From CBDUXZ01 sp965371325 [NCBI: uncultured bacterium] (GTDB lineage: Bacteria > JAUYMQ01): 5,890 nucleotides of DNA. The stretch lies in NCBI GenBank assembly GCA_965371325.1, contig CBDUXZ010000142.1:1-5890 (forward strand), given 5' to 3'. A model generated the notes under the pieces. That model made no database searches, had not been told where the DNA came from, and worked only from the letters and a program-made list of their open reading frames with translations. Numbering within the stretch: the stretch's first letter is position 1; every line of letters begins with the position of its first letter. The position numbers were made by a program, and so were the translations under genes. This document shows, in pieces, positions 1,759 through 5,890 of this stretch.

Positions 1759-3908
1759 GATTCTTCTCCCGAGTCAATTCGGCCGAGGGCGGCCTGCAAC
1801 TCCGCGCGCTGTGAATCATCGCGCGCCCGCGCGATCGCCATCTCGAGGGCTGCGCGGGCCGCCTCAATGCGCCCGCGTTTCTTCTCCAGCTCGAAGAGCT
1901 GCTCGTAGGGCTCGGGCGCGTCGGGCGACGTCTCTCGCGCCTCGGCAATGGTGACGGCTGCTGCGTCCAACCTTCCCAGGCTTATCTGCAAAATCGCCAC
2001 GTTCAGGAGTGTCACGGGATCGCCCGGGTTCTTTGCCGCCGCCCGCCGAAACATCCGTTCCGCGTCTTCCCATCGCGAAAGCCCGCTGTAAAGGCGTCCG
2101 AGCTCGTTCGAAACACTCGGATCGTTCGATGAAAGGGAACTCGCCAGCTCAGCGATCACCACGGCGTCCTGGGGCCGGCCCTGCAGCTTCAGCACTTCGC
2201 CGGAGACGCTGAGTAGGTATGCGTGGTAACGGGCGGCGTCGATGTCATCCAGAAGGCCGGGGACCTCGATTTCCCGCCCGAGAAATGCACGTACGCGCTT
2301 GAAGTATGCGTCGGCCTCTTCGCGGGAGAGCGACACGACGCCGTCGGGATTGAAACGCCACAGGTAGAGCCAGGGCCGAAGGTACGCGTACACAGCTGGA
2401 TTGAGCGTGCTCAACGGCTCCCAGTAAACGGGAACGCGACCCAGATTGCGCCGCAGGAGTTCCTGAAAGAACTCCTCCCACCTCTTTTGATCGCCGCCCC
2501 CTTCCGGCACTTCGATTTTCGGAAACCGCACCGGGGTGACCGGCGTGAAGTAGGTCGGCAACGTGAGATCACTCACGAGCAGGATGCTTACGTCGGGACG
2601 CGCCCCTTCCACGTCCTGCAGGTAGCGCATGGGGAACCAGTTGGCGGTCACGAACGCGATGGCGTTCTCGTCGAGCGGGAGAAGATTGGCCGCCGCCGCC
2701 GAGCGCGGACCGTCGTGAATCCGCGAAATGGCCCTCACCGCCCCATCGCGGACCAGCAGCACGATGGCCATGGTAATCGCAAGTGCCGTTGCCGGAACCG
2801 CGAGCCGCCGGAACGGGGGCCGGAGATCGAATATGCGGGCCGATGCTATCCCCGCCCAGAGCGCCACGAACCAGAAAGTGGGGAGATAGGCGTCCGGAAT
2901 GGTCCAGATGCGCAGGAAGAACAGAAGGTTCCCCAGGCAGAACAGAACCGTGAAGGTTCCCCACCGGGCCGAGCGAACAAACGTAATTACCAATCCCGAA
3001 AGGGCGAGCAACCACCCGACAACCGTCACTTCCGCGTTCAGATTGCGCGCAAAGATCTTGATGTAGGGCCACCAGGGCTGTGCGCCGCCGGTAAAGTGGA
3101 AATCGGCATCCTTCCTGTCCGTCACATGCGATACAAATCGTTCCCACGTGTCGGGGTGCCCCCAGTTGAAGGCCGGCTCCGTTGCCGCCCGAATGGGGAG
3201 GTAGAGGTAAACGGAAGCCCCGAGTATTCCGAAGAAGGCTATGCGAAGCAGCATTCGTAACCGGCGGCCGCGGGGGATGCCCGTCAACACCAGAAAGACG
3301 AGGGCGGGGGTGAAAAACAGGGTGGTGCCATGAATTCCGCCGGAGAGCCCGAAGACGAATGCACCGCCGAGGAGATACCGATCGTCGCCGCTCTCCGCCC
3401 ACCGCAAAGCAAGAAAAACCAGCAGCGCCACGACCAGCGCCAGCGGCGCATAGACCTCCGCGTGGGTGGCAAAGTTCCAGTAGGTAGGAGAGAGCGCCAG
3501 AAGCGAGCCGCTGGCCATCCCCGCCACCCGGCCGGCAGTCGGACTCCCACCGAACCGGCGGTGCAGAAGGCCGACGCACAGGGCCAACAGCACGACGCCG
3601 GCCACGCCGCAAAGGAGCGAGAGAAGATTCACCCGGGCGGCGACCGACCCGGCGGGGAGAAGCCCCGCCAGCTTTCCGAGAAGCGCGTAGGTGGGAGAGC
3701 CCGGAGGATGTCCAATGCCCAGTGTATGAGCAACATCGACGAACTCGGGGGAGTCGTTCCAGCCGATGGTCGGCCTGAGTGTCAGGGCATAGACGGCGAC
3801 AAGGCCGAGGGCCCAGATCAGGAATAGACGGCGGCCCAGGACCGAAGTCTTCCCACCGGTCCCCCGCGATCCCTCGCCGGAGACGCCGATTTCCCCCAAA
3901 CCCACCAT
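1755..3908 (-). CDS. DUF2723 (TMEM260-like) membrane protein with C-terminal TPR repeats
   Basis: 717 residues. The N-terminal half is a polytopic membrane domain with the DUF2723 signatures: NDSPEF (51-56, acidic residues likely at the active site), HPPGSPTY (67-74), THAEVYA (148-154), GIHGTTLFF (191-199) and LPIRAA...FNWGHPDTWERF...HVT (237-263). The middle (about 400-550) is probably periplasmic. Residues about 563-698 form four in-phase 34-residue TPR units, the first degenerate, ending in GEES. DUF2723 belongs to the GT-C fold, and its eukaryotic member TMEM260 is a protein O-mannosyltransferase, so protein glycosylation is a fair inference here; the acceptor is not shown. It lies 102 bases after a pilin gene and is coupled to a second GT-C gene. 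An in-frame TAG two codons upstream rules out a longer start. AGGGG directly abuts the ATG, so a nearby GTG (3905) or TTG (3899) may be the true start. Confidence 0.9.
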   Translation of the reverse strand: MVGLGEIGVSGEGSRGTGGKTSVLGRRLFLIWALGLVAVYALTLRPTIGWNDSPEFVDVAHTLGIGHPPGSPTYALLGKLAGLLPAGSVAARVNLLSLLCGVAGVVLLALCVGLLHRRFGGSPTAGRVAGMASGSLLALSPTYWNFATHAEVYAPLALVVALLVFLALRWAESGDDRYLLGGAFVFGLSGGIHGTTLFFTPALVFLVLTGIPRGRRLRMLLRIAFFGILGASVYLYLPIRAATEPAFNWGHPDTWERFVSHVTDRKDADFHFTGGAQPWWPYIKIFARNLNAEVTVVGWLLALSGLVITFVRSARWGTFTVLFCLGNLLFFLRIWTIPDAYLPTFWFVALWAGIASARIFDLRPPFRRLAVPATALAITMAIVLLVRDGAVRAISRIHDGPRSAAAANLLPLDENAIAFVTANWFPMRYLQDVEGARPDVSILLVSDLTLPTYFTPVTPVRFPKIEVPEGGGDQKRWEEFFQELLRRNLGRVPVYWEPLSTLNPAVYAYLRPWLYLWRFNPDGVVSLSREEADAYFKRVRAFLGREIEVPGLLDDIDAARYHAYLLSVSGEVLKLQGRPQDAVVIAELASSLSSNDPSVSNELGRLYSGLSRWEDAERMFRRAAAKNPGDPVTLLNVAILQISLGRLDAAAVTIAEARETSPDAPEPYEQLFELEKKRGRIEAARAALEMAIARARDDSQRAELQAALGRIDSGEES
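1766..1770 (-). promoter_or_regulatory. Ribosome binding site of the downstream GT-C gene
   Basis: GGGAG lies 7 nt before the GTG at 1758, inside the last codons of the DUF2723 gene. It supports the GTG as the start and a coupled two-gene operon. Confidence 0.6.
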
Positions 3909-3940
3909 CCCCTACTCATCGGCCAAATCCGCCAACAGTA

Positions 3941-3973
3941 AAGCGGGGCCCGGACAAGGTCCGGACCCCGCTT
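3941..3973 (-). terminator. Probable intrinsic terminator or attenuator after the 4412-4011 pilin
   Basis: Two 15-nt arms (3941-3955 and 3959-3973) flank a 3-nt loop. The single position where the arms differ is a G-U wobble in minus-strand RNA but a C-A mismatch in plus-strand RNA, so the fold suits the minus transcript. The stem ends in TTT but the following T tract is weak (TTTACTGTTGG), so some read-through into the DUF2723 gene is plausible. No separate promoter for that gene is obvious in the short gap. Confidence 0.7.
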
Positions 3974-3981
3974 CGAGACTG

Positions 3982-4000
3982 CCCGAGAAGTTAACTCGGG
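3982..4000 (-). other. Small stem-loop between pilin stop codon and terminator
   Basis: CCCGAG (3982-3987) and CTCGGG (3995-4000) form a perfect 6-bp stem with a 7-nt loop, starting 10 nt after the pilin TGA. With the larger hairpin just downstream it makes a tandem 3' structure that could protect the abundant pilin mRNA. There is no T tract of its own. Confidence 0.45.
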
Positions 4001-4010
4001 TGAGCGCGAA

Positions 4011-4412
4011 TCAGCTGCTCACGTCGTTGGTCGTGTTCGTCGACTCCCTGGACGCCTGGGTGACGGTCCAGAGATCGATGGTCGCATCACCATCGATATT
4101 CGCGCTGGCGGTCCCTGTGAAGGACGAACCGCCCGTGTAGGTGAAGTTGTTCACGATGCCCGTGTAGTACTTGGGCGTGGCGCTCGGGGTGAAGCCCGCG
4201 TTCGACAGCGTCCCGTAAGTGTTCTGCTCCGCGAAGTACGCCTGCTCGGCGGTGTACACCGTGGAGAGGAGCTCTTTCGCTTCACTCTGCTTCGACTTGG
4301 CCTGGAAGCGGAGGAAGTTCGGGATCGCGATGGCAGCCAAGATACCGATGATGGCCACGACGATCATGAGCTCGATCAGTGTAAAGCCCTTCCTGTTTCG
4401 CAGTTTCATCAT
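4011..4412 (-). CDS. Type IV pilin (major-pilin type), short leader
   Basis: 133 residues. A basic 9-residue leader (MMKLRNRKG) precedes the prepilin peptidase site G9/F10, followed by FTLIE with the invariant Glu at mature position 5 (E14). Next is one hydrophobic helix ([15 protein letters not shown]), then a short globular part with [11 protein letters not shown] and [14 protein letters not shown] and a Ser/Thr/Asn-rich tail ending in Ser. The mature form is 124 residues with no cysteine, so there is no disulfide-bonded D-region as in Pseudomonas or Neisseria pilins. It aligns without gaps to the pilin at 5249-4821. PilD-like cleavage and N-methylation followed by assembly into a pilus is expected from the family. 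Two N-x-T sequons (mature N80, N117) and the C-terminal Ser are possible glycan sites. AGGAG 9 nt before the first of two ATGs favours 4412 as start. A consensus sigma-54 promoter lies upstream. Confidence 0.93.
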
Positions 4413-4421
4413 TTTCAGCCA

Positions 4422-4426
4422 CTCCT
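4422..4426 (-). promoter_or_regulatory. Ribosome binding site of the 4412 pilin
   Basis: AGGAG within a purine-rich run lies 9 nt before the ATG at 4412 and 12 nt before the adjacent ATG at 4409. The spacing favours the first ATG. The site is outside the folded leader that ends at 4441. Confidence 0.65.
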
Positions 4427-4440
4427 CTTCTTCAAAATCT

Positions 4441-4560
4441 GGGGCGATCCGTTTCGCTGCGCCTTGTCGGCTCTATCAGATGGATCTCCCAGTCATGTCC
4501 GGAAGCCTGTTTGCACGGCCGACAAGGCCAGCCCAGCATTTGCTTCCTCTCACCCGCCCC
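4441..4560 (-). other. Structured 5' leader (candidate cis-regulatory RNA) of the 4412 pilin
   Basis: Complementary blocks nest inside the predicted leader. GGGGCG (4560-4555) pairs with CGCCCC (4446-4441) as a closing stem. GCCTTGTCGGC (4528-4518) pairs perfectly over 11 bp with GCCGACAAGGC (4471-4461) across a 46-nt loop. A competing local fold pairs GGAAGC (4547-4542) with GCTTCC (4506-4501) and closes a small GGCC/GGCC hairpin (4529-4517) that uses the same strand as the 11-bp helix. The two states cannot coexist. The block starts about 25 nt after the expected transcription start and ends 28 nt before the ATG, leaving the ribosome binding site just downstream. I recognise no known riboswitch consensus. 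Folding is inferred from complementarity only. Confidence 0.5.
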
Positions 4561-4595
4561 TTCACAGCGAAGAGGACGGTCACGGCCCCGGCTTT

Positions 4596-4612
4596 TGCAA
4601 CCGTCGTGCCAA
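4596..4612 (-). promoter_or_regulatory. Sigma-54 (RpoN) promoter of the 4412 pilin
   Basis: TTGGCACG-ACGG-TTGCA on the minus strand matches the full -24/-12 consensus YTGGCACG-N4-TTGCW. The invariant GG (4610-4609) and GC (4598-4597) are exactly 10 nt apart. Transcription should start near 4585, giving a leader of about 172 nt. Pilin promoters in many bacteria use sigma-54 with the PilR activator; no pilS/pilR gene is in this window. Confidence 0.88.
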
Positions 4613-4759
4613 AGACGCCTTCCCGAAGGGTCTTCCGGATTTCCAATTTTTTCCTTTGCAATGACAAGGGGTTAGGGACTCGATCCTTCGGTCTGCCACG
4701 GCGCCCGAGAGTGAGGGGCCGAGCAATCACTGTTCCTCGCCCTGGGAAAGGACAATTTG

Positions 4760-4804
4760 GGTCACTTTGTGACCGTTTTCGTCACCCGCGACAACGCGGG
4801 TCAC
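4760..4804 (-). other. Two tandem stem-loops after the 5249-4821 pilin
   Basis: First, ACCCGCG/CGCGGGT (4784-4790 with 4795-4801) forms a 7-bp stem with a 4-nt loop, extendable by two pairs beyond one mismatch. Second, GGTCAC/GTGACC (4760-4765 with 4769-4774) forms a 6-bp stem with a 3-nt loop. The pentamer GTCAC or its complement occurs four times here. Neither stem is followed by a T tract on the minus strand, so simple intrinsic termination is doubtful; 3'-end stabilisation or factor-dependent termination is possible. Confidence 0.45.
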
Positions 4805-4827
4805 GGTGTTAGCTACGGTGTTAGCTA
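4804..4827. repeat. Perfect 2 x 12-bp tandem repeat spanning the pilin stop codon
   Basis: CGGTGTTAGCTA occurs twice in direct succession (4804-4815, 4816-4827). On the minus strand the unit covers the last Ser codon and the TAA of the upstream pilin, so the duplication places a second TAA in the same frame 12 nt downstream. It looks like a recent slippage duplication. Confidence 0.8.
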
Positions 4828-5249
4828 TTGATGTCGTTGCTTGTGTTGCTGGGAGTTCGTGCCGCGTTGGTGACCTCCCAGATGTCGAGGGTCGCGTCAC
4901 TGTCGAGGTTGGCGCTGCAGGTTCCGGTGAAAGACGAGGCGGCCGTGTAGGAGAAGTTCGCCTTGACGTTCGTGTAGAACTTCGGGGCCGCGGAAGGTGT
5001 GAAGCCGACGTTGCTGAGTGAGCCATACCGGTTATGTTCCCCAAAATACGCCTCTTCAGCGGTGTAAACCGTCGCCAGAAGCTCCTTGGCTTCGCTCTGC
5101 TTGGCTTTCGCCGCGAAGCCGAGGATCTGGGGGATCATAATCGCCGCAAGGATGCCCAGGATCGCCATGACGACCACCAGTTCGATGAGGGTCACTCCGG
5201 TTTTCCTGGAGGCTACCGGCGAACGGATTCCGGTTTTTATAACGTACAT
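4821..5249 (-). CDS. Type IV pilin paralogue with long leader and Val at +1
   Basis: 142 residues. An 18-residue leader with several basic residues ends in Gly18, then VTLIE (V19-E23) starts the mature protein: Val replaces the usual Phe at +1 and Glu+5 is kept. A single hydrophobic helix (LVVVMAILGILAAIMIP) is followed by FAAKAKQSEAK and TAEEAYFGEHNRYG. The mature part is 124 residues, the same as the pilin at 4412-4011; a gapless hand alignment gives 83 identities. It has one unpaired cysteine (mature 93) where the paralogue has Ala. Sequons N-F-S (N80) and N-T-S (N117) and the terminal Ser are retained. GAGGGGAG 2 nt before the ATG is a strong but tight ribosome site. The GTG at 5195 cannot be the start because it would remove the Gly needed for cleavage. 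It may be a second structural subunit or a minor pilin; the sequence does not decide. Confidence 0.92.
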   Translation of the reverse strand: MYVIKTGIRSPVASRKTGVTLIELVVVMAILGILAAIMIPQILGFAAKAKQSEAKELLATVYTAEEAYFGEHNRYGSLSNVGFTPSAAPKFYTNVKANFSYTAASSFTGTCSANLDSDATLDIWEVTNAARTPSNTSNDINS

Positions 5250-5251
5250 GG

Positions 5252-5259
5252 CTCCCCTC
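5252..5259 (-). promoter_or_regulatory. Ribosome binding site of the 5249 pilin
   Basis: GAGGGGAG lies just upstream of the ATG, leaving 2 nt after its last G and about 4 nt after the AGGGG core. The spacing is short, but no alternative start keeps the prepilin leader. Confidence 0.55.
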
Positions 5260-5272
5260 GAATTTCGGCGCT

Positions 5273-5302
5273 GATGCCCGGCGTGGGTTCCGGGCGGGCA
5301 TC
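5273..5302 (-). other. 5'UTR hairpin of the 5249 pilin
   Basis: GATGCCCG (5273-5280) and CGGGCATC (5295-5302) make a perfect 8-bp stem with a 14-nt loop between the expected transcription start (about 5317) and the ribosome binding site. A further GGC/GCC pairing beyond a short bulge could lengthen it. It may stabilise the mRNA 5' end; it shares no evident sequence with the longer leader of the other pilin. Confidence 0.5.
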
Positions 5303-5327
5303 GCCTTACCCTCCAGAGGCGCTAGGG

Positions 5328-5344
5328 TGCAATTAATGTGCCAG
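5328..5344 (-). promoter_or_regulatory. Sigma-54 (RpoN) promoter of the 5249 pilin
   Basis: CTGGCACA-TTAA-TTGCA on the minus strand matches the -24/-12 consensus except A for G at the last base of the -24 box. GG (5342-5341) and GC (5330-5329) are exactly 10 nt apart. The start of transcription should be near 5317, about 68 nt before the ATG. The promoter lies in the gap right after the TPR gene, so the pilin need not depend on read-through. Confidence 0.87.
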
Positions 5345-5372
5345 CGCTTTCAGCCCCCCGGGCGTTACGAAA

Positions 5373-5890
5373 TTATCTCTCCAGGTTACGAATCCGTTCC
5401 CGGGCGAGGTGCCGCTGCCCCGCGTTGCCCTCCCCCGAAGCCAGGAAGGTCCGAAGGACCTTCACGGCGGCCGTTCCTTCCTCCCCTTCCGCGAGGAGAA
5501 GTCCCTGCGCCAGCAGGGGGGCGCCCGCGCGCGGCCGGAGGCGCGAGGCCTCCCTGAATGCCACTGCTGCCGATTCGCGTTCCCCTGCGCCCGCGCGCGC
5601 GGCTCCGAGTCCCATCCAGAGATCGTAATTCTCCGGCGCCAGCCGCACGCCCCCCTCAAAAAAAGTCGCCGCCAGAGAGAATTTCCCCTGGCCGTAGTAG
5701 ATGACACCGAGGTTGTGGTAGGGGCGCGTCAGCGTGGGATCGGCTTCGAGCGCGGCCCGAAGATGCGCCTCCGCCAGATCCGCCCGGCCTCCTTCGAGCC
5801 ACCATGTTCCGAGATTGAAACGCGCGAGGGCACTCCGCTCGCTCTTGGCGGCGGCGTCGGTCCAGAGCGTCCCTTCATCCTTCCAGACCC
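5373..5890 (-). CDS. TPR protein, C-terminal part; probably the TPR tail of a TMTC/GT-C-like membrane protein (5' end outside window)
   Basis: 171 codons are visible before the TAA at 5375-5373; the frame stays open to the window edge, so the start lies outside. The first residues, VWKDEGTLWTDAAAKS, match the conserved linker (W-x-D/s-x-x-x-L-W-x-D) that joins the membrane domain to the TPRs in TMTC-like GT-C proteins. Then come about three 34-residue TPRs: ALARFNLGTWW...ADP, TRPYHNLGVIYYGQG...APE and YDLWMGLGAARAGAG...RPR, followed by a degenerate helical end (RIRNLER). TPRs mediate protein-protein contacts and would face the periplasm in such proteins. If the membrane part is present, this would be a third glycosyltransferase-superfamily protein beside the pilins; that domain is not in view. 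It ends 123 bases before the pilin start. Its 3' end carries a perfect dyad at 5445-5463. Confidence 0.8.
   Translation of the reverse strand, partial: VWKDEGTLWTDAAAKSERSALARFNLGTWWLEGGRADLAEAHLRAALEADPTLTRPYHNLGVIYYGQGKFSLAATFFEGGVRLAPENYDLWMGLGAARAGAGERESAAVAFREASRLRPRAGAPLLAQGLLLAEGEEGTAAVKVLRTFLASGEGNAGQRHLARERIRNLER
5445..5463. promoter_or_regulatory. Dyad in the TPR gene upstream of the sigma-54 promoter (possible activator site)
   Basis: GAAGGTCC-GAA-GGACCTTC is a perfect 8-bp inverted repeat with a 3-nt centre. Its centre is about 137 bases upstream of the expected start at 5317, the usual range for an RpoN enhancer-binding protein. It lies within codons for KVLRTF, so chance from coding sequence is possible. 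Confidence 0.3.

What the first reader, a model, noticed from the sequence alone, without database searches (positions are those of the whole stretch)
4441..4560. Pilin leader with two mutually exclusive folds: possible undescribed regulatory RNA
A 6-bp closing stem encloses a perfect 11-bp long-range helix. The 5' strand of that helix is also part of a self-contained local hairpin enclosed by GGAAGC/GCTTCC. Competing folds within a 120-nt block ending 28 nt before the start codon are typical of ligand- or protein-responsive leaders, and I match it to no known riboswitch class.
Basis: partly seen in the sequence, partly recalled or inferred. Interest (0 to 1): 0.62.

Follow-up and report, generated by a model that had tools for sequence, protein, structure and literature searches.

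The report
Conserved two-fold RNA leader of pilin
The stretch of messenger RNA in front of a type IV pilin gene can fold in two mutually exclusive ways, and both folds are preserved in a related bacterium, so it is probably an undescribed RNA switch that controls pilus production.

Summary
On the minus strand, between a sigma-54-type promoter site (4612-4596) and a type IV pilin gene (ATG at 4412), lie the claimed closing stem, the perfect 11-bp helix and the competing GGAAGC/GCTTCC hairpin. 0 of 500 dinucleotide shuffles of the 120-nt block give an 11-bp helix. The only close relative found, a Deltaproteobacteria MAG (L001, partial L002), keeps gene order, promoter site and leader. Four-fold codon sites are 35-45% identical to the window, but the leader's 5' half is 66/74; in its 3' half helix columns are 39/44 identical, others 26/55. 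The pair alignment supports one fold (z -6) and a second fold sharing no pair with it (z -7), 0 of 300 column shuffles each. The long-range fold can also pair a 5' octamer with the ribosome-binding site. Rfam: no credible match. Best reading: a bistable cis-regulatory leader, probably acting on pilin translation, trigger unknown. Limits: two species; one clear compensatory pair; no power for covariation; in L001 the closing stem is hardly populated and the predicted ON/OFF effect on the ribosome-binding site is not clear.

The parts
4596..4612 (-). sigma-54-type promoter site TTGGCACGACGGTTGCA; predicted start about 4585
   Evidence: pattern scan (consensus recalled); kept in L001 as TTGGCACGGCGGTTGCA; start position inferred from usual spacing
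4569..4576 (-). anti-Shine-Dalgarno octamer UCCUCUUC (pairs with 4430-4423)
   Evidence: L001 ACCUCUUC with GGAGAGGU; alignment register uncertain
4557..4575 (-). local hairpin P0, CCUCUUCG/UGAAGGGG, 8 bp
   Evidence: alifold fold 1; kept in L001 with G-U to G-C
4555..4560 (-). closing stem P1, 5' strand GGGGCG
   Evidence: invariant in L001; in alifold fold 2 but bpp 0.01 or less in L001 alone
4441..4446 (-). closing stem P1, 3' strand CGCCCC
   Evidence: invariant in L001 and L002
4542..4547 (-). hairpin A, 5' strand GGAAGC
   Evidence: invariant in L001
4501..4506 (-). hairpin A, 3' strand GCUUCC
   Evidence: kept in L001 and L002
4512..4538 (-). inner stems of hairpin A: UGC/GCA and GGCUGGC/GUCGGCC
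   Evidence: two changes in L001, both keep pairing
4518..4532 (-). helix B, 5' strand GCUG + GCCUUGUCGGC
   Evidence: L001 keeps pairing with one both-sided and one G-U change
4456..4471 (-). helix B, 3' strand GCCGACAAGGC + CAGC
4486..4505 (-). hairpin C, CUUCCGG/CUGGGAG, part of the long-range fold
   Evidence: MFE fold of window; core CCGG/YYGG kept in L001 and L002 by eye
4446..4486 (-). helix D, GAUCC (4486-4482) with GGAUC (4450-4446), part of the local fold
   Evidence: alifold fold 1; invariant
4423..4430 (-). ribosome-binding region GAAGAGGA
   Evidence: read from sequence; paired in the long-range fold
4011..4412 (-). type IV pilin gene A downstream of the leader
   Evidence: N_methyl, PF07963

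Best explanation
The leader of the pilin mRNA is a bistable cis-regulatory RNA. As it is transcribed from a sigma-54 promoter, its 5' half first folds into two local hairpins, P0 and A. When the 3' half emerges, its strands can unzip these hairpins and pair long-range with the same 5' segments: B first, then P1, and last the 5' anti-Shine-Dalgarno octamer with the ribosome-binding site, all nested. In the long-range fold the ribosome-binding site is buried and pilin translation is low; in the local fold the anti-SD is locked in P0 and translation can start. A factor that binds the nearly invariant 5' half (small molecule, protein or sRNA), or the pace of transcription, would set the choice. 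Shown by computation: both folds exist, exclude each other, are conserved in the one relative, and lie far below shuffled controls. Inferred: transcript start, order of folding, translational read-out. Unknown: the trigger.
For: Leader kept in the only close syntenic relative, while four-fold sites against the window are 21/53 and 23/52 (pilin A, L001 and L002), 22/49 (pilin B) and 89/253 (TMEM260-like) identical. Leader 5' half 66/74 identical; 3' half 39/44 in helix columns, 26/55 elsewhere (hand-anchored alignment; Fisher p 1.5e-5). Internal control: the leader of neighbouring pilin B is 46/94 identical after its promoter site, random level 0.32 +/- 0.07. Alifold fold 1 -57.5 against -34.9 +/- 3.8; fold 2, sharing no pair with it, -53.8 against -29.5 +/- 3.4; 0 of 300 shuffles each. 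Single sequences, dinucleotide shuffles: MFE z -2.7 (3 of 300 as low, window) and -3.2 (1 of 300, L001); disjoint second fold z -3.3 and -5.2 (0 of 300 each). Seven of 58 listed pairs differ between window and L001 and all still pair, five of them through a G-U pair in one of the two, which fits RNA better than a DNA palindrome; the helices were picked as pairing in both, so this is not a blind test. Growing-transcript folding: P0 and A first, B at about 130 nt in both.
Against: Two species only; the partial third sequence lies in the same MAG as L001. Covariation has no power (244 of 500 shuffles reach the observed). The SD helix is in a stretch of uncertain alignment (register shifted by 2 columns). 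In the full window leader hairpin A is not populated at equilibrium (B 1.00, A 0.00) and the local fold lies 5.6 kcal/mol above the MFE. In L001 the closing stem P1 has probability 0.01 or less at every length, the preferred fold flips with transcript length (A 0.99 at 150 nt, B 0.78 at 170, A 0.92 at 190), and the SD octamer is mostly paired in the local fold too (unpaired 0.15, against 0.63 in the window), so the ON/OFF read-out is not conserved in the model. Some other pilin leaders are as stable against shuffles (L015 z -3.3, L017 -2.7). Transcript start and expression are untested.
Confidence: 0.5

Rival explanations
1. A structured leader that only stabilises or matures the abundant pilin mRNA (a 5' hairpin shielding it from RNases). 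One fold works; the other is a by-product of strong complementarity.
For: Very stable folds in both sequences; pilins need much mRNA (general knowledge); the window's equilibrium strongly favours B.
Against: Does not predict a disjoint second fold at z -7 on the alignment and z -3.3/-5.2 in single sequences, nor near-invariant unpaired positions in the 5' half (22/26).
Confidence: 0.2
2. A landing site for an RNA-binding protein (CsrA-like, or an autoregulating pilus protein) or an sRNA, with a single relevant fold; regulation is by occupancy, not by switching.
For: 5' half 66/74 identical including unpaired positions; conserved GGA words in the 5' half and near the ribosome-binding site (read from sequence).
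Against: Several GGA words of the 3' half are not kept between window and L001 (alignment, by eye); no candidate factor was identified.
Confidence: 0.15
3. Conserved DNA: operator half-sites downstream of the promoter, with repeats bound by a protein as DNA.
For: The 11-bp repeat is perfect in the window; it sits next to the promoter.
Against: Changes that keep pairing through G-U break a DNA repeat but not an RNA helix; conserved islands of the 3' half are complements of several different 5' segments.
Confidence: 0.06
4. A leader peptide: an open frame from GUG (window 4583) or AUG (L001) at the very 5' end codes for about 24 conserved residues.
For: Frame open in both, start codon in both, 20 of 24 residues the same.
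Against: Silent sites are conserved in all three frames (four-fold 10/13, 10/10, 10/11), changed codons in the frame are 3 silent and 4 not, and a gap shifts the frame after the block.
Confidence: 0.05
5. Shared ancestry and chance: the leader is simply less diverged and the folds mean nothing.
For: Only two species; formal covariation test without power.
Against: Silent sites nearby are 35-45% identical; shuffles that keep the conservation pattern never reach either fold.
Confidence: 0.04

Closest known systems
c-di-GMP-II riboswitch of C. difficile pilA1 (Cdi-2-4; passages of PMC6200980)
   Same: Structured 5' UTR of a major type IV pilin gene that changes fold
   Different: No match to any c-di-GMP family here; Cdi-2-4 acts by transcription read-through, while the simple scan found no terminator-like site on this strand
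c-di-GMP-I / GEMM-I (RF01051)
   Same: Present in 6 of 15 genomes behind the pilin loci, that of L001 included
   Different: In the L001 genome it lies on another contig (C487), with no pilin among the listed frames (by eye); the leader itself does not match
Translational riboswitches with SD sequestration (recalled)
   Same: Two exclusive folds, one burying the ribosome-binding site
   Different: The anti-SD lies at the 5' end, upstream of the putative sensing part; no ligand known; read-out not clear in L001
Metastable leaders: toxin mRNAs (PMC6733600, listing only) and the MS2 maturation gene (recalled)
   Same: Local hairpins form first and a later long-range fold closes translation
   Different: Pilin gene; a kinetic role rests here only on equilibrium folds of growing transcripts

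Membership tests
Riboswitch, any described class | Match to a known aptamer family | tested here: not met
   Rfam 15, whole window, E up to 5: only mir-598 (2.3) and HOTTIP_3 (0.34), both far under their cut-offs
Riboswitch, general | Conserved alternative folds in an mRNA leader | tested here: met
   two species only
Riboswitch, general | Direct binding of a small ligand | not testable with these tools
   needs probing or a binding assay
c-di-GMP-I (RF01051) | Covariance-model match at the leader | tested here: not met
Transcription attenuator | Intrinsic terminator in one of the folds | tested here: not met
   one terminator-like site in 3850-5400, on the plus strand (1.7 expected by chance); the scan allows loops of 3-8 only
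Translational, SD-sequestering leader | SD paired in one fold and free in the other | tested here: inconclusive
   Unpaired in long-range / local fold: window 0.00 / 0.63, L001 0.00 / 0.15
Covarying RNA family | Significant covariation | tested here: inconclusive
   1 both-sided and 1 one-sided change in 21 pairs, 46 of 46 cells paired; 244 of 500 shuffles as high; slid controls 32-51% paired

The most novel reading that the evidence does not exclude
A new class of signal-responsive RNA switch in front of a sigma-54-controlled pilin gene, in which a nearly invariant 5' domain of about 75 nt senses a ligand or protein and decides between two complete, non-overlapping sets of helices, one of which seals the ribosome-binding site with an anti-SD at the very 5' end of the transcript.
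Probability: 0.3. Interest if true: 0.75.

Novelty: new variant of a known kind. Interest (0 to 1): 0.55.

Why it matters
The riboswitch known in front of a pilin gene (C. difficile pilA1) senses c-di-GMP. A second, unrelated RNA layer on a sigma-54 pilin gene would mean that pilus synthesis in this lineage is gated twice, at the promoter and after it. The element is compact, two complete exclusive folds in about 160 nt, and can be tested directly in vitro and with reporter fusions in E. coli.

Tried and rejected
Rfam on the window: chance-level hits only. Hammerhead-like and HDV-like readings were weighed by eye and dropped: the hammerhead-like words of the window are not kept in L001, no HDV core is evident, and Rfam shows no hit. 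Homologue search: genome contigs with the pilin part after residue 33 gave 35 loci, only L001 and L002 close; viral contigs none (the latter an exact 18-mer); plasmids none. Model R1 against 33 genomes, behind all 35 loci except that L002 and L034 share the MAGs of L001 and L013: 3 of 33 have a match at E up to 1; only G001 is convincing (7.9e-33, and 2.5e-9 for the partial copy); G015 (0.41), G021 (0.69) and a third G001 place (0.75) are chance level, of which I looked only at the first 200 bases of the G015 locus, which stop short of the match. R1 was built on alignment A2, in which the GGCTTCC word of L001 is one base out of register, so it is less sensitive there; and it omits hairpin A. 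For larger genomes only 110 of up to 228 candidates were scored.

Leader peptide: not favoured. L003 as a homologue: not supported (z -0.42; no R1 match); kept as an analogy. In one search one L001 helix (GCUG/CAGC) was put at a wrong CAGC; its constrained L001 energies are not used, repeats them. The alignment was anchored by hand on four shared words, which favours identity there and so also the Fisher test; unanchored MAFFT misplaces GGCTTCC but shows the same 5' block (37/40 and 39/40 in overlapping windows). The column shuffles do not keep dinucleotides; one search does. Yardstick: 22 of the 35 loci were given (near-duplicate Corallococcus and Myxococcus loci, short ones and L014, without a clear start, were left out), with starts picked by a simple rule. 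Papers: searches (20 of 61 listed; 20 of 159; 15 of 167; 10 of 20) listed nothing on this leader; open-licence library only. Read as passages only: PMC8835794, PMC6060248, PMC6200980.

Full report
What is there. On the minus strand the window holds the end of a TPR gene (5888-5373), pilin gene B (5249-4821), pilin gene A (4412-4011), a TMEM260-like membrane protein with TPRs (3908-1755) and a PMT-like membrane protein (1758 to the edge). Both pilin genes have a sigma-54-type site in front: TTGGCACGACGGTTGCA at 4612-4596 and CTGGCACATTAATTGCA at 5344-5328 (consensus recalled). From the usual spacing the pilin A transcript should start at about 4585, giving a leader of about 170 nt that contains the whole reported block (inference).

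The observation. Every reported helix is at the stated place. The 11-bp helix is the longest perfect inverted repeat that the repeat search lists in 3900-5400. In dinucleotide shuffles 0 of 500 (120-nt block) and 0 of 300 (171-nt leader) reach 11 Watson-Crick pairs; the block folds at z -3.4, 0 of 200 as low. As a yardstick, 21 other pilin leaders and L001 went through: the window (z -2.7) is among the more structured, but L015 (-3.3) and L017 (-2.7) are as low, and L018 and L031 hold short-span helices of 13 and 12 bp. Stability alone would not have been enough.

Comparison. A search with the pilin part after residue 33 found 35 loci; L001 and L002, two contigs of one Deltaproteobacteria MAG (79% identical), are the only close ones, and together show the same gene order. 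L001 has the promoter site and the leader; L002 starts inside the leader and covers the last 80 nt of the block. Four-fold degenerate sites against the window are only 35-45% identical, so silent positions are far diverged. Against that, the leader's 5' half is 66/74 identical, and overlapping 40-nt windows reach 37/40 and 39/40. In the 3' half identity is 26/55 outside the helices but 39/44 inside them (Fisher p 1.5e-5; hand-anchored alignment). The leader of neighbouring pilin B, also behind a sigma-54-type site, shows 46/94 against a random level of 0.32 +/- 0.07, so strong leader conservation is not general in this locus.

Two folds. RNAalifold on the pair gives fold 1 (P0, hairpin A with its inner stems, helix D) at -57.5. 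Forbidding every pair of fold 1 gives fold 2 (five pairs of the anti-SD with the ribosome-binding site, P1, B with its GCUG/CAGC extension, hairpin C) at -53.8. Column shuffles that keep the conservation pattern of each half give -34.9 +/- 3.8 and -29.5 +/- 3.4; none of 300 reaches either value. In single sequences with dinucleotide shuffles the best fold has z -2.7 (3 of 300 as low) in the window and -3.2 (1 of 300) in L001, and the disjoint second fold z -3.3 and -5.2 (0 of 300 each). Of 58 listed pairs of both folds 7 differ between the two sequences and all still pair, two by changes on both sides (B: U-A to C-G; SD helix: U-A to A-U, in an uncertain alignment) and five through a G-U pair; the inner stem of A and B share two of these substitutions. 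The helices were picked as pairing in both, so this count is descriptive. The formal pair count is uninformative for covariation (244 of 500 shuffles as high) but shows 46 of 46 cells paired against 32-51% in slid controls.

How it may work. Folding of growing transcripts puts P0 and A first (A 0.91 or more from 90 to 110 nt in both), and B replaces A at about 130 nt. In the window P1 and the SD helix then dominate at 170-180 nt (0.94 and 0.96) and fall to about 0.65 at 200 nt and 0.45 at 206 nt. In the long-range fold the ribosome-binding octamer is fully paired; in the local fold of the window it is unpaired at 0.63 on average. In L001 the two folds lie close (local -74.6, long-range -72.2, MFE -76.7), and the preferred one flips with transcript length; but P1 stays at 0.01 or less, and the octamer is mostly paired in the local fold too (0.15 unpaired). 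So two conserved exclusive folds are well supported, the translational read-out only in the window, and the trigger not at all. The near-invariance of the 5' half, with 22 of 26 positions outside the named helices, fits both the need to serve two folds and binding by a factor.

Is it known? No Rfam family matches credibly. c-di-GMP-I RNAs occur in 6 of 15 genomes tested, that of L001 included, but there on another contig. A riboswitch before a pilin gene is a known arrangement: C. difficile pilA1 with its c-di-GMP-II riboswitch (PMC6200980, passages). Passages of PMC8835794 link pilus genes to cGAMP levels in Geobacter, which makes cyclic dinucleotides a fair first guess to test, no more. Paper searches listed nothing on this leader. 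The element was found in 1 of 33 genomes reached, so it is narrow, or too diverged for the model; the window's own genome is not held.

Verdict. A real, conserved, structured mRNA leader with two exclusive folds, most likely a cis-regulatory switch of pilin synthesis and a new family of a known kind. I put about 0.85 on a functional RNA element of some sort, 0.5 on a regulated switch with a translational read-out, and 0.3 on a new class that senses a ligand or protein.

Noticed in passing
window 4741-4780: A second conserved block upstream of the promoter, with the inverted repeat GGTCACAAAGTGACC (32/40 identical to L001), about 155-195 nt before the predicted start: a possible sigma-54 activator (PilR-like) site. 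Several Corallococcus pilin leaders have a similar GTGACAAAAATTGGCA word.
   Followed up: partly
window 5344-5250: Paralogous pilin B has its own sigma-54-type site and a shorter leader with a GC-rich hairpin; the leader is only weakly similar in L001 (46/94).
   Followed up: partly
L003 76-235: The leader of a Nitrospira sp. MAG pilin has an 11-bp long-range repeat (one G-U pair) whose 5' strand sits inside a local hairpin: a similar layout with different sequence, not more stable than shuffles (z -0.42).
   Followed up: partly
L060 350-434: A c-di-GMP-I riboswitch match (60.6 bits) in the genome of L001, on a contig without the pilin locus; its downstream gene was not identified.
   Followed up: no
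window 3941-3973: A GC-rich near-perfect hairpin between pilin A and the TMEM260-like gene, read by eye; perhaps a terminator or processing site, though one search does not list it.
   Followed up: no
window 4803-4826: A tandem 12-nt repeat ACGGTGTTAGCT at the 3' end of pilin B.
   Followed up: no
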